Made by a program: the position numbers and the translations under genes. The notes beneath the pieces were generated by a model, which was given only the letters and a program-made list of their open reading frames with translations, had not been told where the DNA came from and did not search any database. DNA of 35,992 nucleotides from Alphaproteobacteria bacterium (GTDB taxonomy: Bacteria > Pseudomonadota > Alphaproteobacteria > GCA-2731375): assembly GCA_030746635.1 (NCBI GenBank), contig JASLMH010000030.1, positions 1 to 35,992 of the forward strand. Direction: 5' to 3'. Positions 18,420 to 27,690 of the stretch are shown in pieces (the stretch's first letter is position 1; each line of letters opens with the position of its first letter).

Positions 18420-19295
18420 TTATTCGGTGACTCCCGGCGGCTCCACCGTGCGCCGTTCCACTGCCAGCAGATCTTCCAGGCCGATGGTGTCGTGCAACTC
18501 GTCCTGCAGGCGCTGCCAGTCCGCCACCGGCCGCGAGCGGATGGCGAAGCCATCGGCCAATTCGGCGTAGACCGCGCGCATGGCCTCGTAGGCCGCCAAC
18601 AGCGGCGTCACCGGCGTCACCAGCAGGCAATAGCCGAGGCTGCGCAGTTCCACCGCCGTCAGGTCCAGCGCCGCCACGCCGTGCGCCGGCAGCAGCAGCA
18701 TCAGCGGTTCGGGCAGTCGTTCGCCGATCTGACGTGCCTCCTCGGCAGTGCGCGGGCTCAACAACAGCGCGTCGGCGCCTGCCGCCTTGTAGGCCTCGGC
18801 CCGGCGCAGGGCGTCGTCCAGGTCGGAGGCGCGCACGCCATTGCTGCGGGCGATGATGACGGTCTGGGGATCGCGGCGCACGGCCACGGCCTCCCGCACC
18901 TTCGCGACCATCAATTCCAGAGGCACCATGTGCTCGGTGCCGACATGGTGGTGGGCCCGCTTGGGCAGGATCTGATCCTCGATCTCGATGGCGGCGAAGC
19001 CGGCCGCCTCGGCCATGCCCATGGTGCGATGGATGTGCATGGGATCGCCCCAGCCGGCCGCCGCGTCCAGAATCAGCGGCAGCTCCGAGGCGGCGCGAAT
19101 CTCGATGCCGGCCTGGCACATCTCGGTCAGGCTGAGATTGGCCTCCAGGTGCACCTTCAGGTAGCCCGACGCACCGCCGCCGAGGTAGAGGGCGCGGAAG
19201 CCCGCCTGCTCGGCCATTTTCGCCATCAGCGGGTTGAGCACCAGTGGCGCGCAGACCGGTTCGTCCGCCGCCATCATCGTCCGCAAATCCGTCAT
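18420..19295 (-). CDS. Isocitrate lyase/PEP mutase superfamily protein with altered active site
   Basis: A 291-residue protein of the PEP mutase/isocitrate lyase superfamily, TIM-barrel enzymes that make or break C-C or P-C bonds in 2-oxo and 2-hydroxy acids. Support comes from LYLGGGASGY (36-45), IEIEDQILPKRAHH (103-116) and the later IIARSNG. Two key motifs differ from canonical lyases: D-A-D-x-G is DAAAG (77-81), so one metal-binding Asp is Ala79, and the catalytic loop K-(K/R)-C-G-H is PKRAHH, with Ala114 for the Cys. It is therefore not a standard (methyl)isocitrate lyase. ATG 19295 has GGGAGGA upstream. The RND gene ends 53 bases upstream, with an inverted repeat TTGCCGG/CCGGCAA at 19308-19331 between them. 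Confidence 0.8.
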   Translation of the reverse strand: MTDLRTMMAADEPVCAPLVLNPLMAKMAEQAGFRALYLGGGASGYLKVHLEANLSLTEMCQAGIEIRAASELPLILDAAAGWGDPMHIHRTMGMAEAAGFAAIEIEDQILPKRAHHHVGTEHMVPLELMVAKVREAVAVRRDPQTVIIARSNGVRASDLDDALRRAEAYKAAGADALLLSPRTAEEARQIGERLPEPLMLLLPAHGVAALDLTAVELRSLGYCLLVTPVTPLLAAYEAMRAVYAELADGFAIRSRPVADWQRLQDELHDTIGLEDLLAVERRTVEPPGVTE

Positions 19296-19348: not shown

Positions 19349-22300
19349 TCAGGTCAGCGCAACACCATCGTCGCGCAGCCAGACGTAGATCGCCGGGATC
19401 ACCAGCACCGTCAACAGGGTCGAGGAAGCCAGGCCGAACAACAGCGAGATGGCCAGACCCTGGAAGATCGGATCGGTGAGGATGAAGCCGGCTCCGACCA
19501 TGGCGGTGACGGCGGTCAGGAAGATCGGCTTGAAACGGATGGCGCCGGCCGCCAGCAGGGATTGGCGCAGGGGCATGCCCTCGGCCTGGCGCAGCTTGAT
19601 GAAGTCGACCAGCAGGATGGAGTTGCGCACGATGATGCCGGCCAGGGCGATGAAGCCGATCATCGAGGTGGCGGTGAAGGCGGCCTCGAACAGCCAGTGC
19701 CCCAGCATGATGCCGATCAGGGTCAACGGGATCGGCACCAGCACCAGCAGCGGCACCTTGAAGCCGCCGAACTGGCCGACCACCAGGAAGTAGATGCCGA
19801 CCATGGCGACCATGAAGGCCGCGCCCATGTCGCGGAAGGTGACGTAGGTAATCTCCCATTCGCCGTCCCACAACAACGAGGTCTTGGCCTCGTCCCTGGG
19901 CTGGCCGACCAGCCGCATCTCGGGCGGGCCGTCGGCGCCCCAATCGATCTCCTCGATGGCCCGCTGCACCGCCAGCATGCCGTAGATTGGCGCCTCGAAG
20001 CGGCCGGCCAGTTCGGCCATCACCATTTCGGCGAAACGGCCGTCGCGGCGGAAGATCGGGTACGAGGCCCGTTCGGTCGACAGGCGGACCAGATCGCCCA
20101 CCTCGACTACGCCGCCGGCCTCGGTCGGCACCGGGGTGGACAGCATGCGTTCGCTCAGATGGCGAGCCGAGCGCGGCAGGCCGATGAAGATCTCGATCGG
20201 ATTGGCACCGCCGCCGCGATGGGAATAGCCGACCCGCCGGCCGTTCAGCAGGGTCTGCAGGGTATCGAACAGTTCGCCCTCCTCGACCCGATGGAACTCC
20301 AGGCTTTCCTGATTGGTGGCAATGTGCAGTTGCGGGGCCGGCGCACCAAAGGAATCGTCGGTATCGACGATGAAGTCGATGCTTTCGAACACCTGGCGCA
20401 GTTGCCCGGCCGTGCGCCGGCGGCTCTCGGCGTCCGGGCCATAGACCTCGGCCAGCAGGGTGGCGATCACCGGCGGCCCGGGCGGTACTTCCACCACCTT
20501 GACGGCGGTGCCCGCCGGCACCGGCACCCGGGCGAGGCGCTGGCGCACGTCGAGGGCGATGGCGTGGCTGGCCCGCTCGCGGTCGTGCTTCGCGGCCAGA
20601 CCAAGCTGCAATTCGCCCTGTTCCGGCCGCGAACGCAGATAGCTGTGGCGCACCAGGCCGTTGAAGTTGAACGGCGCGGCGGTGCCGGCATAGGCCTGCA
20701 GGTGTTCCAGTTCCGGCAGGTCGGCCAGGGCCCTGGCCAGGGCCATCAGCGTCCGCTCGGTGCGTTCCAGGCTGTGGCCCTCGGGCAGATCGACCACGAC
20801 CTGCAGTTCCGATTTGTCGTCGAACGGCAAAAGTTTCACGACCACGTCCTGGCTGTAGAACAGGCCCAGCGAGGCCAGGGTGGCAACCGTGACGGCGAGC
20901 AGAAACAGCCGGGCCCGCCAGCGCCCGCGCAACAGCGGCCGGGCCAGCAACAGATAGACCCGCCCCAGCACGCCGCCGGGATCGGGTTCGCCGCCCGCGG
21001 CCTCTTCGTCGCCCGCCGTCTGCGCCGCCGGTCGATGGCCCAGCTTCAGCATCAGCCAGGGCGTGACGATCAGGGCCATCAGCAGCGAGAACAGCATGGC
21101 GGCGCTGGCCACGGCCGGGATCGGGCTCATGTACGGCCCCATCAGGCCGGAGACGAACAGCATCGGCAGCAGCGCCACGATGATGGTGAAGGTGGCGACG
21201 ATGGTCGGATTGCCGACCTCGGCCACGGCGGCGATCGCCGCCTGCACCAGGTCCCCCCGGTTGCCCCGTTGCCAGTGGCGGACGATGTTCTCGACCACGA
21301 CGATGGCGTCGTCGACCAGGATGCCGATGGCGAAGATCAGCGCGAACATGCTGACCCGGTTGATGGTGTAGCCCATCATCCAGGCCGCGAAGAAGGTCAG
21401 CAGGATGGTCGTCGGAATGACGAAGAACACCACCACGCCGGCCCGCCAGCCGAGGAACAGGGTCAGCAGCACGACGATGGACACGGTGGCGCCAAGCAGA
21501 TGGCCCAGCAGTTCGTTGGCCTTCTCGGCCGCCGTCTCACCGTAGTCGCGGGTGATGGTGACCTCGACGCCGTCGGGGATCAGGCGTCGGCGCACGTCGT
21601 CGATCCGTTGCCGCACCGCCTCGGCGATGGCCACCGCGTTGGCGCCCTGGCGTTTGGCGATGGCCAGGCTGACCGCCGGCCGCGGCGTCAGACTACCCTC
21701 GGTACCCGGCCGCATGTGCCAGGCCCGGTGTTCCGCCGTGTCGCCGGCGACCACGATGTCGGCGACGTCGCGCAGATAGACCGGCCGGCCGTCCATCGAG
21801 GTGACCAGCAGCCGGCCGATGTCCGGGCCGCCCTGCAGGGTCTGGCCGGCGACCACCGGCAGCATGCGGTCGGCCTGGCGGACCGCGCGCAGGCGCATGG
21901 CGCGGTTGGCGTTGCCGACCTTCTCGACCAGTTGGTTGAGGGCGATGCCGTAGAGCGCCAGCCGTTCGGGATCGGGCTCGACCCGCAGACGACTGGCCCG
22001 GCCGCCGACGATATAGGTCAGGCCGACCCCGTCCTCCTTGATCACCTCGTGGCGCAGTTCCTCGGCCAGCTCGTACAGGGCGGTGTCGGTCCAGCGGCCG
22101 GCGTTGCCCGCCTCGGGCGACAGGGTGACCACCAGGATCGCCACGTCGTTGATGCCGCGGCCGATGATCAGGGGTTCGGGAATGCCGATGGGGATGCGGT
22201 CGAGGTTGGCCCGCACCTCGGCATGCACCCGCAGGATCGCCGCATCCTCGTCATGGCCGACCAGGAACCGCGCCGTGACCAGCACGCGGTTGTCCTCGGT

Positions 22301-22564
22301 GGACGAGTAGACGTGCTCGACGCCATCGATGCCGTTGATGATGTCCTCCAGCGGCTCGGTCACCAGTTCCACCGCATCGGTGGCCTTCAGGCCGTCGGCC
22401 TGCACCAGGATGTCGACGATGGGAACGCTGATCTGCGGTTCCTCCTCGCGCGGCAGCAGCGCCAGGGCGAGGCCGCCGATGGCCAGCGAGGCCAGCAGCA
22501 ACAGCGGCGTCAGCGGCGATTGGATGAAGGTCCGGGTGACCAGACCGGACAGCCCCAGCTTCAT
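19349..22564 (-). CDS. RND efflux transporter permease
   Basis: A 1071-residue inner-membrane RND pump subunit of AcrB-like layout: an N-terminal helix LTPLLLLASLAIGGLALALL followed by PREEEPQISVP, a large periplasmic loop, six clustered helices, a second loop and six more. Proton-relay aspartates Asp418 and Asp419 lie in GILVDDAIVVVENIV. In the later helix cluster, where AcrB has Lys940, this protein has Arg in GIIVRNSILLVDF. It lacks obvious metal-selective marks of CzcA/CusA, so substrate is open. Its ATG overlaps the adaptor stop codon (ATGA). No outer-membrane TolC-like channel gene is adjacent. It forms an operon with the adaptor and DUF2892 genes behind the ArsR-type regulator. Confidence 0.93.
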   Translation of the reverse strand: MKLGLSGLVTRTFIQSPLTPLLLLASLAIGGLALALLPREEEPQISVPIVDILVQADGLKATDAVELVTEPLEDIINGIDGVEHVYSSTEDNRVLVTARFLVGHDEDAAILRVHAEVRANLDRIPIGIPEPLIIGRGINDVAILVVTLSPEAGNAGRWTDTALYELAEELRHEVIKEDGVGLTYIVGGRASRLRVEPDPERLALYGIALNQLVEKVGNANRAMRLRAVRQADRMLPVVAGQTLQGGPDIGRLLVTSMDGRPVYLRDVADIVVAGDTAEHRAWHMRPGTEGSLTPRPAVSLAIAKRQGANAVAIAEAVRQRIDDVRRRLIPDGVEVTITRDYGETAAEKANELLGHLLGATVSIVVLLTLFLGWRAGVVVFFVIPTTILLTFFAAWMMGYTINRVSMFALIFAIGILVDDAIVVVENIVRHWQRGNRGDLVQAAIAAVAEVGNPTIVATFTIIVALLPMLFVSGLMGPYMSPIPAVASAAMLFSLLMALIVTPWLMLKLGHRPAAQTAGDEEAAGGEPDPGGVLGRVYLLLARPLLRGRWRARLFLLAVTVATLASLGLFYSQDVVVKLLPFDDKSELQVVVDLPEGHSLERTERTLMALARALADLPELEHLQAYAGTAAPFNFNGLVRHSYLRSRPEQGELQLGLAAKHDRERASHAIALDVRQRLARVPVPAGTAVKVVEVPPGPPVIATLLAEVYGPDAESRRRTAGQLRQVFESIDFIVDTDDSFGAPAPQLHIATNQESLEFHRVEEGELFDTLQTLLNGRRVGYSHRGGGANPIEIFIGLPRSARHLSERMLSTPVPTEAGGVVEVGDLVRLSTERASYPIFRRDGRFAEMVMAELAGRFEAPIYGMLAVQRAIEEIDWGADGPPEMRLVGQPRDEAKTSLLWDGEWEITYVTFRDMGAAFMVAMVGIYFLVVGQFGGFKVPLLVLVPIPLTLIGIMLGHWLFEAAFTATSMIGFIALAGIIVRNSILLVDFIKLRQAEGMPLRQSLLAAGAIRFKPIFLTAVTAMVGAGFILTDPIFQGLAISLLFGLASSTLLTVLVIPAIYVWLRDDGVALT

Positions 22565-23526
22565 GGCCGCACCAGGGTGTCACCCGTCTCCAGGCCCGAC
22601 AGTATCTCGATGCCGCCGTCGACGCCGCCGCCGGTCTGCACCACCACCTCGACACCGGATTTCAGCCGCGCGTAGGTCAAGCCGAAGCGGTTGATCAAAT
22701 AGCCGGTCGGGATCACCACGGCATTGCGTGTGCCGGTGGCGACCCAGACCCGGGTGCGTTCGCCGACGAAATAGTCGCCCATGCCCTCGACCGACACATC
22801 GGCGGTGACCCGGCCGCCCTCGATCTCCGGATAGACCTTGGCGATCGTGCCCTGGCGTGGCGTCCTGGGCGCCGTGGCCAGGCCGCGCTCGGCGATCCGC
22901 ACCGGGTCGCCGGCCTTGATGTAACGGGCGTGACGTTCGGGGATGCGGATGCGCAGGATGTAGCGATCGGCGGCGATCACCGCGATCACTTCGCCCGGCT
23001 GCACCACGCTGCCCTCGGTGACGGCGACTTGCAGCACCCGGCCGCCGGCCGGGGCCCGGATGTCGCCCTCCCGTTCCTGCTGCACCAGCACCGCCCGTTC
23101 GGCCTTCAGGGCCGCCAGTTCGGCGACGACCACGTCATGGTCGGTCTGCGCCTCGTCCAGGCGGGCTCGGCTCAAGGCGCCCTTCTTGCGCAATTCCTTG
23201 GTGCGATCGAGCACCGTGCGCGTCAACTTGCGCTGGGCCAACAGAGAGGTTCGGCGGGCGTCGAGGGCGGCCAGCTTCAGGCGCAGCTTGCGATCGACGA
23301 TGGTGGCCAGGATCTGCCCGGCCCGCACGGCACTGCCCTCGTCAATGCCGAGGTTGCGGACGGTACCGCCCAGGCGGGCCCGGGCCAGGGTTCGGTCGAC
23401 GCTGGACACCACCCCGAACACCGCCTTGTGATCCTGCAAGGCCCGCTGTTCGACCACGTGGCTCTGTGCCAGCGCCGACGCCGCCGACAGCAGCAACACC
23501 AGGGACAAGCCGATCAAACGCACCAT
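22561..23526 (-). CDS. RND periplasmic adaptor (membrane fusion protein)
   Basis: A 321-residue HlyD/AcrA-type adaptor linking the RND permease to an outer-membrane channel. Residues 1-20 are a signal peptide ending ASALA. A split lipoyl domain follows (GTVRNLGIDEGSAVRAGQIL and DIRAPAGGRVLQVAVTEGSV) around a helical hairpin of about residues 85-150 rich in Lys, Arg, Leu and Glu. The beta-barrel region contains RIRIPERHARYIKAGDPV. There is no lipobox cysteine, so it is probably anchored by its partners or free in the periplasm. ATG 23526 has the strong site GGGGGAGGAGG. Its last four bases overlap the permease start. Confidence 0.92.
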   Translation of the reverse strand: MVRLIGLSLVLLLSAASALAQSHVVEQRALQDHKAVFGVVSSVDRTLARARLGGTVRNLGIDEGSAVRAGQILATIVDRKLRLKLAALDARRTSLLAQRKLTRTVLDRTKELRKKGALSRARLDEAQTDHDVVVAELAALKAERAVLVQQEREGDIRAPAGGRVLQVAVTEGSVVQPGEVIAVIAADRYILRIRIPERHARYIKAGDPVRIAERGLATAPRTPRQGTIAKVYPEIEGGRVTADVSVEGMGDYFVGERTRVWVATGTRNAVVIPTGYLINRFGLTYARLKSGVEVVVQTGGGVDGGIEILSGLETGDTLVRP

Positions 23527-23560
23527 TGCCTCCTCCCCCGATTGTTCGCCGCCTTGCGCC

Positions 23561-23764
23561 CTAGTTGAAGGCGTTACCGGGCTTTGCGCCGACATGCTTG
23601 AGGATCCGCGCCAGCGGGCAGAAGCCGGTAAACGCGGCCTGGAACATGTTAAGGCCGACGAACAGGGTGAAGAACAGCCAATAGGGATGCACGTAGTGGG
23701 CCAGGGCCAAGCTGAGGGTGATGAAGACACCGGCGAAAGCGAAAACCATGCGGTCGATGGACAT
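23561..23764 (-). CDS. Small two-helix membrane protein, DUF2892 type
   Basis: A 67-residue membrane protein of the DUF2892/YgaP-like transmembrane family (PF11127). Two hydrophobic stretches, [20 protein letters not shown] and [20 protein letters not shown], flank a short loop, then the family ending [15 protein letters not shown] with its Cys-Pro. In other bacteria such segments are fused or linked to rhodanese domains and sulfur metabolism (known for YgaP). It is the first gene after the divergent promoter; ATG 23764 has AAGGAG upstream, and the adaptor starts 34 bases after its stop. The association supports a link between the RND pump and reactive sulfur. Confidence 0.88.
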
Positions 23765-23830
23765 TTCAGACTACTCCTTTTGCAGTTTTCCACCGCTTGG
23801 GAGATCACTCGCGAAACCGGCGGGAATTAT

Positions 23831-23941
23831 ATTCATAACTTCGTAATTCCGAATATATGTATTTTCGTAGATACGTCAACCGCCGCGCGGAGAGAATCTT
23901 GACAACCCACTGCATAATTTCTTATATACGAAGGTATGAAT
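23831..23941. promoter_or_regulatory. Repeated operator-like sites in the ArsR/efflux divergent promoter
   Basis: The AT-rich space between the DUF2892 and ArsR genes holds ATTCATAACTTCGTAAT at 23831-23847 and its inverted relative at 23925-23941, which reads ATTCATACCTTCGTATA on the minus strand (14 of 17 identical). A weaker version with TTTCGTA lies at 23855-23871. TATATTC at 23828 also pairs with GAATATA at 23851. The right-hand site covers the ArsR start codon, fitting autorepression. Confidence 0.55.
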
Positions 23942-24262
23942 ATTGAAGACATGCAGGAATCAGCCCAGGCGGCCAGCAATCTGCTGGACGCCATGTCCAA
24001 CGAGAACCGGCTGATGATCCTCTGCCAACTCTCCGACGGCGAAAAATCGGTCGGCCAACTGGCCGAGCTGATCGGCGCCCGCCAGGTCGCGGTATCGCAG
24101 CAACTGGCGATCCTGCGCCGGGAGGGACTGGTGCGGCCCCGGCGCCAGGCCCAGACGGTCTTTTACTCCCTGGCCAGCGACGCCGCCCGCCAGGTGATCG
24201 AGACCCTGTACGCGATCTATTGCGGCCCGGCCGCCGACAAAGCCGAGAAACCCGCCGCCTAG
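23936..24262 (+). CDS. ArsR-family repressor, BigR/SqrR-like persulfide sensor
   Basis: A 108-residue ArsR/SmtB winged-helix repressor. The core is LLDAMSNENRLMILCQL, then VGQLAELIGARQVAVSQQLAILRREGLV as the DNA-binding helices. It has exactly two cysteines, Cys30 in MILCQL and Cys96 in YAIYCG, 66 residues apart. BigR (Cys42/Cys108) and SqrR (Cys41/Cys107) have the same spacing and surroundings and form a di- or tetrasulfide bridge when reactive sulfur rises, releasing DNA. No arsenic- or zinc-type motif is present. ATG 23936 has GAAGG almost touching it, so an in-frame ATG at 23951 is a possible alternative. It converges with the methyltransferase gene, stop codons overlapping in CTAG. Confidence 0.88.
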   Translation: MNIEDMQESAQAASNLLDAMSNENRLMILCQLSDGEKSVGQLAELIGARQVAVSQQLAILRREGLVRPRRQAQTVFYSLASDAARQVIETLYAIYCGPAADKAEKPAA

Positions 24263-25664: not shown

Positions 25665-25758
25665 TGCTCTCCCTTGCCTTGGCCGGTGTTGCGGTTCAGC
25701 CTAGAAGGAATTCTCCGCCCTGGCCATGTGGGCGGACCGCGAACCAGGAGGACCCCCC

Positions 25759-27690
25759 ATGAGCCCATCCGACCGGCCGGAGCCGATCATGCCCAAGGAC
25801 GCCGAGCCGGCGACCCGAGCGGCCAACGACAAGGTGGCGGCGAGCCTGCCGTTCGACGACGTCGAGGATTTCACCGATGTGCGGCGCGGCTTCATCGGCA
25901 CCCTCGACGGCGGCAAGATCACCTCCGATAGCGGCACCCCGGTCTGGAACCTGACCCTGTACGACTTCCTGGCGGATGAAGAACCGCCGGCCACGGTGAA
26001 CCCCAGCCTGTGGCGGATCGCCCGCCTGAACATGGCCCATGGCCTGTTCAAGGTGGTCGACCGGGTCTACCAGGTTCGCGGCCTGGACATCGCCAACATG
26101 ACCATCATCGAGGGCGATAGCGGCCTGATCATCGTCGATCCCCTGACGGCGGCGGAGACCGCTCGCGCCGCCCTGGCCCTCTACCACGCCCACCGGCCGG
26201 AAAAGCCGGTGCTGGCGGTGATCTACAGCCACAGCCACGTCGACCACTACGGCGGCGTCAAGGGCGTCTTGACCGACGAGGCGGTGCGCAGCGGCGAAGC
26301 CCAGGTGTTCGCTCCCGACGGCTTCATGGAGGCGGTGGGCGGCGAGAACGTCCTCGTCGGCAACGCCATGCTGCGGCGGGCGCAGTTCCAGTTCGGCGCC
26401 CTGGTGGCGCCGGGACCGCGCGGCCAGGTCGACGCCGGCCTGGGCAAGGGGGTGGCCCGCGGCAACGTCGGCCTGATCCCGCCAACCGTGGTGATCGAGC
26501 AGCCGGTGGAAACCCACGTCATCGACGGCGTCGAAATGGTCTTCCACTTGGCGCCCGAGACCGAGGCGCCGGCCGAGATGCACATGTACCTACCGCGGTT
26601 CGCGGTGCTGAACATGGCCGAGAACGCCACCCGGCACCTGCACAATTTCTGTCCCCTGCGCGGCTCGGTGGTGCGCGACCCGCGCATGTGGTCGCATTAT
26701 CTGTCCGAGGCCAGCGAGATGTTCGGCGACCGCACGGAGGTGCTGATCGGCCAGCACCACTGGCCGACCTGGGGCCGGGAAAAGATCGGCGAGTTCCTGA
26801 CCAAGCAGCGTGATCTCTACAAGTACGTACACGACCAGACGGTGCGGCTGATGAATTTGGGCTACCGCCCGGCGGAGATCGCCGAGGTGCTGGACCTGCC
26901 GCCCGAACTGTCGGCCGAATGGTCGGTGCGCGGCTACTACGGCACCATCAGCCACAATTCCAAGGCGGTCTATCAGCGCTATCTCAGTTGGTACGACGGC
27001 AACCCGACCAACCTGAACCCGCTGCCCCCCGTGGAGACGGCCAGGAAGACCGTCGAATACATGGGCGGGGCCGAGCCCATGCTGACCCGGGCCCGGACGG
27101 ACTTCGGCAACGGCGAATTCCGCTGGGTGGCCCAGGCCATGCAGCATCTGGTGTTCGCCGAGCCGGACAACAGAGCCGCCCGGGAGCTGGGCGCCGATGC
27201 CCTGGAGCAACTCGGCTACCAGGCGGAATCGGCGACCTGGCGCAACGCCTTCCTCTACGGCGCCCAGGAACTGCGCAACGGCGTGCTGCAATTGCCGCCC
27301 CGGCCGATCCTGCCGCCCGATCTGCTGAACGGCATCGACACCGAGACCCTGTTCGATTTCATCGCCGTGCGCCTGAACGCCGGCGAGGTGATGGGCCGCC
27401 GCTTCCGCATCAACTGGCACATCACCGACAGCGACGAGAGGCTGCTGCAGAACCTGGAGAACAGCGCCCTGACCCAGGTCATGGGCAAGCAAGCCGAGGA
27501 TGCCGATGCCAGCGTCGCCACCGACCGGGCGACCCTGGTCGCCCTGTGCATCCGCCGCACCACGGTGGCCGAGGCGATCGCCGACGGCCGGTTGACGGTA
27601 ACGGGCGACGATGGGGTGGTGGCGACGCTGTTCGAGCTGCTCGACGATTTCCCCCTGCAGTTCGAGATCCTGACGCCGGGGGACCGCTGA
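25759..27690 (+). CDS. Alkylsulfatase-like metallo-beta-lactamase (SdsA type), no signal peptide
   Basis: A 643-residue homologue of SdsA-type linear alkylsulfatases, which hydrolyse alkyl sulfates such as dodecyl sulfate to alcohol and sulfate with two zinc ions. The zinc motif is IYSHSHVDHYGG (His158, His160, Asp162, His163). Glu273 in EAPAEMHMYLP, Glu288 in NMAENATRHLHN and a histidine in LIGQHHWPTWGR complete the family pattern. The middle alpha-helical part (GYRPAEIAEVLDLP) and the C-terminal SCP2-like domain are both present. Characterised SdsA1 is exported, but here the N-terminus MSPSDRPEPIMPKD has no signal peptide, suggesting a cytoplasmic enzyme. ATG 25759 has AGGAGG upstream, better than ATG 25726. 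Confidence 0.9.
   Translation: MSPSDRPEPIMPKDAEPATRAANDKVAASLPFDDVEDFTDVRRGFIGTLDGGKITSDSGTPVWNLTLYDFLADEEPPATVNPSLWRIARLNMAHGLFKVVDRVYQVRGLDIANMTIIEGDSGLIIVDPLTAAETARAALALYHAHRPEKPVLAVIYSHSHVDHYGGVKGVLTDEAVRSGEAQVFAPDGFMEAVGGENVLVGNAMLRRAQFQFGALVAPGPRGQVDAGLGKGVARGNVGLIPPTVVIEQPVETHVIDGVEMVFHLAPETEAPAEMHMYLPRFAVLNMAENATRHLHNFCPLRGSVVRDPRMWSHYLSEASEMFGDRTEVLIGQHHWPTWGREKIGEFLTKQRDLYKYVHDQTVRLMNLGYRPAEIAEVLDLPPELSAEWSVRGYYGTISHNSKAVYQRYLSWYDGNPTNLNPLPPVETARKTVEYMGGAEPMLTRARTDFGNGEFRWVAQAMQHLVFAEPDNRAARELGADALEQLGYQAESATWRNAFLYGAQELRNGVLQLPPRPILPPDLLNGIDTETLFDFIAVRLNAGEVMGRRFRINWHITDSDERLLQNLENSALTQVMGKQAEDADASVATDRATLVALCIRRTTVAEAIADGRLTVTGDDGVVATLFELLDDFPLQFEILTPGDR

What the first reader, a model, noticed from the sequence alone, without database searches (positions are those of the whole stretch)
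19349..24262. RND efflux pump apparently controlled by a persulfide-sensing ArsR repressor
The divergent regulator has two cysteines 66 residues apart, as in BigR and SqrR, and the first gene of the pump operon is a DUF2892 protein of the YgaP type linked to sulfur. This suggests an efflux system for sulfur species, or for toxic compounds produced under sulfide stress, rather than a generic drug pump.
Basis: partly seen in the sequence, partly recalled or inferred. Interest (0 to 1): 0.6.

Follow-up and report, generated by a model that had tools for sequence, protein, structure and literature searches.

The report
Sulfide-linked RND efflux pump operon
This is a bacterial export pump, with its own switch gene, that sits among sulfide-handling genes in many related bacteria, so it most likely helps cells deal with reactive sulfur rather than with drugs; what it exports is still unknown.

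Summary
In detail: a divergent 108-residue ArsR with Cys30/Cys96 (best PDB match SqrR), then DUF2892, adaptor and RND pump genes in one tight operon. The sulfur reading is well supported by computation. Relatives of this pump lie beside DUF2892 in 19 of 25 and a Cys-pair ArsR in 14 of 25 class loci, and often beside sulfide:quinone oxidoreductase, rhodanese and thioredoxin; 26 loci of another RND clade had none. A 22-bp operator (TATATWCG-N6-CGWATATA), learned from eight other loci, picks four sites in this window, all between ArsR and the pump operon, on both promoters; three of six genome-wide matches lie there. The same motif sits near four gene starts of the Paracoccus denitrificans sulfide cluster. 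The pump has no cysteine, as do 63 of 86 close relatives but 0 of 26 controls. Cargo, sulfide induction and sensor chemistry are untested. That SqrR-type repressors lie near RND pumps is in print (PMC12423496); my searches found no description of this pump clade, its operator, DUF2892 pairing or lack of cysteine. New variant of a known kind.

The parts
23936..24262 (+). ArsR-family repressor of SqrR/BigR type, Cys30/Cys96
   Evidence: NCBIfam BigR 89.8 bits, below its cut-off of 155
23561..23764 (-). DUF2892 (YgaP-like_TM) small membrane protein with a TGFCP motif (Cys49), first gene of the pump operon
   Evidence: PF11127 44.2 bits; the only PF11127 hit in the own genome
22561..23526 (-). RND periplasmic adaptor (membrane fusion protein), signal-peptide-like start
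   Evidence: TIGR01730 112 bits over cut-off 94.9, PF13437; start codon read
19349..22564 (-). RND permease of HAE1 type, Asp418-Asp419 in TM4, no cysteine
   Evidence: PF00873 456 bits; model pLDDT 82, nearest folds OqxB, BpeF, AcrB; Cys count
23923..23944 (.). predicted operator 1, over the -10 and start codon of ArsR
   Evidence: 29.4 bits with a matrix made from 8 other loci; 2 mismatches to the consensus
23852..23873 (.). predicted operator 2, over the pump-operon promoter
   Evidence: 25.8 bits; 3 mismatches
23836..23857 (.). predicted operator 3, overlapping operator 2
   Evidence: 21.3 bits; 2 mismatches
23828..23849 (.). possible operator 4, overlapping operator 3
   Evidence: 19.2 bits
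23852..23879 (-). pump-operon promoter, TTGACG-16-TATATT
   Evidence: 10 of 12 consensus bases
23899..23938 (+). ArsR promoter running into the start codon (leaderless type), TTGACA...TATATACG..ATG
   Evidence: pattern found 9 times in the window plus 105 loci, each time at an ArsR start codon

Best explanation
A dedicated sulfide-response efflux operon. In unstressed cells the SqrR/BigR-type ArsR sits on operator sites over its own promoter and over the divergent DUF2892-adaptor-RND promoter and represses both. When sulfane sulfur (persulfide, polysulfide) builds up, Cys30 and Cys96 are bridged by sulfur, the repressor leaves, and the pump is made. The pump, a proton-driven HAE1-type RND trimer with its adaptor and an outer-membrane channel encoded elsewhere, removes sulfur species, or compounds made toxic by them, from the periplasm and inner-membrane surface. 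The small DUF2892 protein, with its conserved membrane cysteine, works with it. Shown here: genes, Cys pair, conserved synteny, operator prediction. Inferred: repression, sulfur bridging, induction. Not shown: the cargo. My confidence is for the sulfide-response regulation and role; for a cargo that is itself a sulfur species I would say about 0.35.
For: Cys pair aligned to SqrR, best of 22 PDB matches. Own-class sample: DUF2892 within 6 kb in 19 of 25 loci, ArsR in 15 (14 with the Cys pair), type I SQR in 7, rhodanese in 5; control RND clade 0 of 26 for each. Over 70 loci at 55% identity or more with 4 kb on both sides: DUF2892 53, ArsR 46, SQR 27, rhodanese 19, thioredoxin 16. The gene order differs between loci, so the set is kept through rearrangement. 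The neighbour SQR is type I, E 9e-148 to A. ferrooxidans SQR. Operator: four window sites, best elsewhere in the window 10.0 bits, 0 of 500 shuffles; 3 of 6 genome-wide matches, including both with 2 mismatches, are here; held-out loci 56 of 76 against control 3 of 25. P. denitrificans: the four best sites in 17 kb lie near the starts of the PDO operon, ArsR, the pump operon and the SQR gene. In Azospira suillum an RND-SQR-adaptor operon is a fitness hit and highly expressed during H2S oxidation (PMC5358917, passages).
Against: 14 of those 70 loci have neither ArsR nor DUF2892 within 6 kb. The window locus itself has no SQR, rhodanese or thioredoxin, and no type I SQR was found in the own genome (83% complete) or in three family relatives. 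The own genome has only distant SQR/FCSD-like hits (28-29%) and a PDO-like frame with one in-frame stop. Some linked ArsRs lack the second Cys (L056, L059 and others). The published SqrR motif ATTC-N8-GAAT is not in the 140-base stretch tested, with N6 to N10 allowed. In Azospira, deleting the whole operon did not slow H2S oxidation, and I could not test whether that pump is a homologue. No expression or binding data exist for this window.
Confidence: 0.72

Rival explanations
1. The pump is part of the sulfide response but its cargo is not sulfur: it exports lipids, quinone adducts, metal-sulfide complexes or other molecules damaged or made toxic under sulfide stress.
For: Same synteny and operator evidence; RND pumps usually move amphiphiles (recalled); the authors of PMC5358917 suggest metal-sulfide toxicity for RND induction.
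Against: The lack of cysteine and the pairing with SQR, rhodanese and DUF2892 even in distant relatives fit a reactive-sulfur cargo better, but only indirectly.
Confidence: 0.35
2. A generic drug or detergent pump that happens to have a thiol-based ArsR; the neighbouring alkylsulfatase (25726-27690) would make SDS-like detergents the cargo.
For: HAE1-type fold nearest OqxB, BpeF and AcrB; alkylsulfatase domains PF14863, PF14864 next door.
Against: Neither the alkylsulfatase nor the methyltransferase, racemase or PEP-mutase neighbours recur in any of 25 relative loci, while DUF2892 and ArsR do; NCBIfam drug-pump cut-offs are not reached (401.8 of 1250).
Confidence: 0.1
3. The ArsR senses metals or organotin, and the pump is a metal pump.
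For: Classified under HTH_metalloreg, 81 bits over cut-off 55; E. coli ygaVP is known as tributyltin-inducible (title of a reference seen).
Against: Closest solved relatives are SqrR, HlyU, BigR and YgaV, not SmtB or CzrA; the heavy-metal RND model TIGR00914 is not reached (224.6 of 701); neighbours are sulfide genes.
Confidence: 0.05
4. Exports small oxyanions (sulfite, thiosulfate) made by sulfide oxidation.
For: PDO and sulfurtransferase in the Paracoccus cluster; TauE next to some loci.
Against: TauE-type carriers could fill that role in some of the same loci; the fold is that of pumps for large amphiphiles.
Confidence: 0.08

Closest known systems
SqrR (Rhodobacter capsulatus), BigR (Xylella, Acinetobacter), YgaV (E. 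coli)
   Same: ArsR fold, both cysteines at the same aligned positions, predicted binding at its own promoter
   Different: Operator TATATWCG-N6-CGWATATA rather than the deduced SqrR site ATTC-N8-GAAT (quoted in PMC9774250); BigR equivalog cut-off not reached; dedicated to a pump operon
ygaVP operon of E. coli
   Same: Cys-pair ArsR next to a YgaP-like TM domain
   Different: DUF2892 stands alone without rhodanese, and heads an RND operon
SqrR-related regulators near RND genes reported in PMC12423496 (section 2.1 read)
   Same: The association of sulfane-sulfur ArsRs with RND pumps is stated there
   Different: That section gives no pump clade, operator, DUF2892 pairing or Cys-free property; its Table S1 and Figure S2 could not be seen
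Azospira suillum Dsui_3440-3443 (PMC5358917, passages)
   Same: RND, adaptor and SQR in one operon highly expressed during H2S oxidation; a DUF2892 gene elsewhere also induced
   Different: Homology to this pump not tested; no ArsR mentioned (term count 0)
OqxB, BpeF, AcrB (HAE1 RND pumps)
   Same: Fold, TM-score about 0.8; catalytic Asp pair (role recalled)
   Different: 19-23% identity; stretch APFNFNGLVRH at 630-640, invariant in the 20 sequences of A1 except 633; no cysteine

Membership tests
SqrR/BigR/YgaV persulfide sensors | ArsR/SmtB winged-helix domain | tested here: met
   PF01022 49.8 bits, cut-off 22
SqrR/BigR/YgaV persulfide sensors | Two cysteines at the aligned positions | tested here: met
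   C30/C96 over SqrR cysteines, gap-free alignment
SqrR/BigR/YgaV persulfide sensors | Sulfur bridge between the cysteines releases DNA | not testable with these tools
   needs protein chemistry
SqrR/BigR/YgaV persulfide sensors | SqrR operator ATTC-N8-GAAT (known for SqrR only; reported absent from a YgaV site in PMC9774250) | tested here: not met
   no ATTC-N6-10-GAAT in the 140 bases around the window ArsR start that were scanned; another palindrome is present
BigR proper (NCBIfam NF040642) | score over 155 bits | tested here: not met
   89.8 bits; the Paracoccus member (85.9) and the own-genome paralogue (91) also fall short
HAE1-type RND pump | AcrB-like sequence family, fold and TM4 Asp pair | tested here: met
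   PF00873 456 bits; D418-D419 invariant in 20 sequences; OqxB/AcrB fold
HAE1-type RND pump | drug export | not testable with these tools
   no assay
Named NCBIfam multidrug RND families | score over family cut-off | tested here: not met
   best 401.8 of 1250
YgaP | YgaP-like TM domain | tested here: met
   PF11127 44.2 bits
YgaP | fused rhodanese domain | tested here: not met
   67 aa, TM domain only

The most novel reading that the evidence does not exclude
The pump is a dedicated exporter of zero-valent sulfur itself (polysulfide chains, S8 or organic persulfides) formed at the periplasmic face by sulfide oxidation: the missing exit for SQR-made sulfur. It has shed its cysteines because its cargo attacks thiols, and DUF2892, with its conserved membrane cysteine, hands sulfur to it. 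In this lineage the pump and switch have outlived the loss of the linked SQR gene.
Probability: 0.25. Interest if true: 0.85.

Novelty: new variant of a known kind. Interest (0 to 1): 0.6.

Why it matters
How cells rid themselves of the sulfane sulfur made by sulfide oxidation is, to my knowledge, poorly understood. A widespread pump clade (155 of 398 Pseudomonadota genomes hold a match at E 1e-180 or better; not all of these are sulfur-linked), annotated simply as an efflux RND transporter, would be a candidate for that step. It is present in Paracoccus denitrificans PD1222 and Azospirillum brasilense Sp7, so the question becomes directly testable. It also warns against reading such pumps as antibiotic resistance.

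Tried and rejected
Chance palindromes alone were not significant in the window (best-arm scores reached by 16 to 87 of 100 shuffles, depending on arm length); the operator claim rests on the comparative matrix only. ATTC-N8-GAAT: not found. Alkylsulfatase, methyltransferase, racemase and PEP-mutase as partners: no recurrence. Adaptor cysteine content: not informative, 76 of 85 relatives and 24 of 26 controls have none. Lack of Cys in the pump as a mark of linkage: it is a clade property, since 15 of 17 unlinked members are also Cys-free; among 30 RNDs of six genomes 2 had none (which replaces the faulty count, where three frames were wrong and some were partial). Four of those 30 also belong to the 26 controls. 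Positions that separate linked from unlinked distant pumps gave no convincing signature. A shared operator with the own-genome BigR-like paralogue on contig C75: none (best 3.3 bits). Papers that led nowhere: PMC10451225 (no term found), PMC9995734, PMC10128140, PMC9774590.

Cautions on the counts. The ArsR, DUF2892 and neighbour profiles were built from the same loci, so the control is the fair comparison, though it favours near homologues. The operator pattern was first drawn up after looking at promoters that included the window's; the matrix then left the window out. The figure drops the eight training loci, and loci with too little upstream sequence.
Full report
What is there. The window (contig C230 of a 5.08-Mb, 83% complete genome) holds a divergent pair: an ArsR gene at 23936-24262 (+) and an operon at 19349-23764 (-) of DUF2892, RND adaptor and RND permease. 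ArsR has Cys30 and Cys96. Its best solved relative is R. capsulatus SqrR (E 3.9e-26), with HlyU, BigR and YgaV among the closest (organism and entry names partly recalled). It scores 89.8 bits with the BigR model, below its cut-off of 155, so I call it SqrR/BigR-like, not BigR. The pump is of HAE1 type by sequence and by predicted fold (pLDDT 82; nearest OqxB, BpeF and AcrB at 19-23% identity), but reaches no named NCBIfam pump family.

Conserved neighbourhood. The pump was found in 27 of 289 genomes sampled from the class, own genome included. I took larger stretches for 25 other full-length cases. The adaptor is adjacent in 25, DUF2892 lies in the stretch in 19, ArsR in 16. The aligned ArsRs keep both cysteines in 16 of 18 rows; L056 and L059 lack the second. 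With profiles and a 6-kb limit the counts are DUF2892 19, ArsR 15 (14 with the pair), type I SQR 7, rhodanese 5, thioredoxin 2; in 26 loci of another RND clade from the same class all of these are 0, while its adaptor is seen in 25. The order and strands of the genes vary between loci. A scan of named genomes kept 80 of 590 confirmed stretches. Over both samples, 70 loci with at least 55% identity and 4 kb on both sides hold DUF2892 in 53, ArsR in 46 (39 with a Cys pair), SQR in 27, rhodanese in 19, thioredoxin in 16, DUF302 in 6 and TauE in 4; 14 hold neither ArsR nor DUF2892. The SQR is type I (E 9e-148 to the A. ferrooxidans enzyme; type and organism recalled from the entry codes).

Distant relatives. 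At 38-45% identity the link is partial: of 20 loci taken from a phylum sample (155 of 398 genomes matched) 10 have DUF2892 nearby, with Cys-pair ArsR in L225, L227, L231 and L232, and SQR in L225, L236 and L238. Two Nitrospira loci (L125, L140) carry SQR, DUF2892, adaptor, pump and a TolC-like gene, and L140 also a rhodanese. A separate distant subfamily of 11 sequences in the tree shows no such neighbours in the stretches held. In that tree of 100 sequences SQR-bearing loci occupy the early branches of the near clade, while the window's branch carries only ArsR and DUF2892. I infer loss of the linked SQR; no ancestral reconstruction was run.

Operator. Regions upstream of 42 Cys-pair ArsRs (window included) are enriched in ATATACGA (8, expected 0.10). 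A promoter pattern ending at the start codon occurs 9 times in the window and 105 loci, each time at an ArsR start. A symmetrised matrix from the eight other promoters gives four sites in this window, 29.4, 25.8, 21.3 and 19.2 bits, all between ArsR and the operon; the best outside this gap is 10.0, and 0 of 500 shuffles of the region reach the top score. They cover the ArsR -10 and start, and the operon promoter TTGACG-16-TATATT. In the whole genome the consensus with up to 3 mismatches has 6 places, 3 of them here, including the only two with 2 mismatches; the backward control has 2. Among loci not used for the matrix, 56 of 76 have a 15-bit site 0.8-2.2 kb upstream of the pump gene, also 23 of 32 without a nearby ArsR, against 3 of 25 controls and 3 of 16 distant relatives. 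This suggests control in trans where ArsR is not linked.

Named examples. In Paracoccus denitrificans PD1222 (plasmid 1) the cluster runs: PDO-like MBL hydrolase, DUF2892, YeeE-type carrier, DUF6691, sulfurtransferase; ArsR (C36/C102); cytochromes, DUF2892, adaptor, pump; and an SQR-like flavoprotein. The hydrolase matches the Blh dioxygenase part (570.6 bits, below the 625 cut-off of the fused model), and the flavoprotein matches mitochondrial-type SQR (E 3.4e-61). The four best operator sites in the 17-kb stretch lie near the starts of these four units; the third (12202) is between the SQR-like gene and a divergent carrier gene. P. pantotrophus is alike. In A. brasilense Sp7 the sites lie by ArsR (21.0 bits) and in the DUF2892/adaptor gap (14.1); in R. 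leguminosarum the best is only 12.2. Pumps in all four have no cysteine.

Cysteine. The window pump has none. Of 86 near relatives 63 have none (mean 0.36), of 26 controls 0 (mean 2.77); of 30 RNDs from six genomes 2 have none (mean 2.30). This is a property of the clade, linked or not, and related sequences are not independent, so I treat it as a hint that the cargo is thiol-reactive, not as proof.

Own genome. Of the eight ArsR-type loci found, one other has the Cys pair, on contig C75 next to a TauE-like carrier and a CcdA-like fragment (the latter read by eye), without the operator. So the window's ArsR looks like a second regulator dedicated to the pump. Type I SQR was not found, while three positive-control genomes rang; distant SQR/FCSD-like genes (28-29%) and a PDO-like frame with one in-frame stop (51%) are present.

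Literature. PMC12423496 (section 2.1 read; passages) states that Cys-pair ArsRs lie near RND pumps; its supplements were not seen. PMC5358917 (passages) reports an RND-SQR-adaptor operon of Azospira suillum as a fitness hit and highly expressed during H2S oxidation, a DUF2892 gene about 10-fold up, and no change in oxidation rate when the operon was deleted, which would fit tolerance rather than oxidation. PMC9774250 (passages) gives the SqrR site and says YgaV binds at its own polymerase site. PMC7315123 (passages) describes BigR control of a PDO operon in Acinetobacter. Ten paper searches were made; none listed a description of this pump clade or its operator. Absence elsewhere is not shown.

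Conclusion. The regulation is well predicted; the cargo is open. A pump for zero-valent sulfur is the boldest reading the evidence allows.

Noticed in passing
L218 (G000:C75) 1-2075: Second Cys-pair ArsR of the own genome, between a CcdA-like fragment and a TauE-like permease: a BigR-type neighbourhood.
   Followed up: partly
window 25726-27690 (+): Alkylsulfatase with MBL fold (PF14863, PF14864) near the pump; not kept in relatives.
   Followed up: partly
L056, L059, L079, L081, L093, L106, L113 ArsR genes: Regulators near the pump that lack the second cysteine spacing although several of these loci keep strong operator sites (for example L093 34.3 bits, L081 32.8 bits); how they sense is unexplained.
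   Followed up: no
L283 (G000:C84:6775-7632): Persulfide-dioxygenase-like frame, 51% identical to the Paracoccus protein, with one in-frame TAG.
   Followed up: no
L005 (G000:C2): ArsR-type domain fused to a rhodanese-like domain in one frame (fusion read by eye).
   Followed up: no
window 18420-19295 (-): PEP-mutase/isocitrate-lyase family gene about 54 nt downstream of the pump on the same strand; does not recur in relatives.
   Followed up: partly
L044, L045, L049, L052, L069, L070, L091, L116 and window 23899-23938: ArsR promoters end so close to the start codon that the mRNA is probably leaderless.
   Followed up: partly
RND residues 630-640: Nearly invariant APFNFNGLVRH stretch at the place of the switch loop (placement by recall), partly kept in distant relatives, absent from controls; poorly modelled (pLDDT below 50 at 635-642).
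   Followed up: partly
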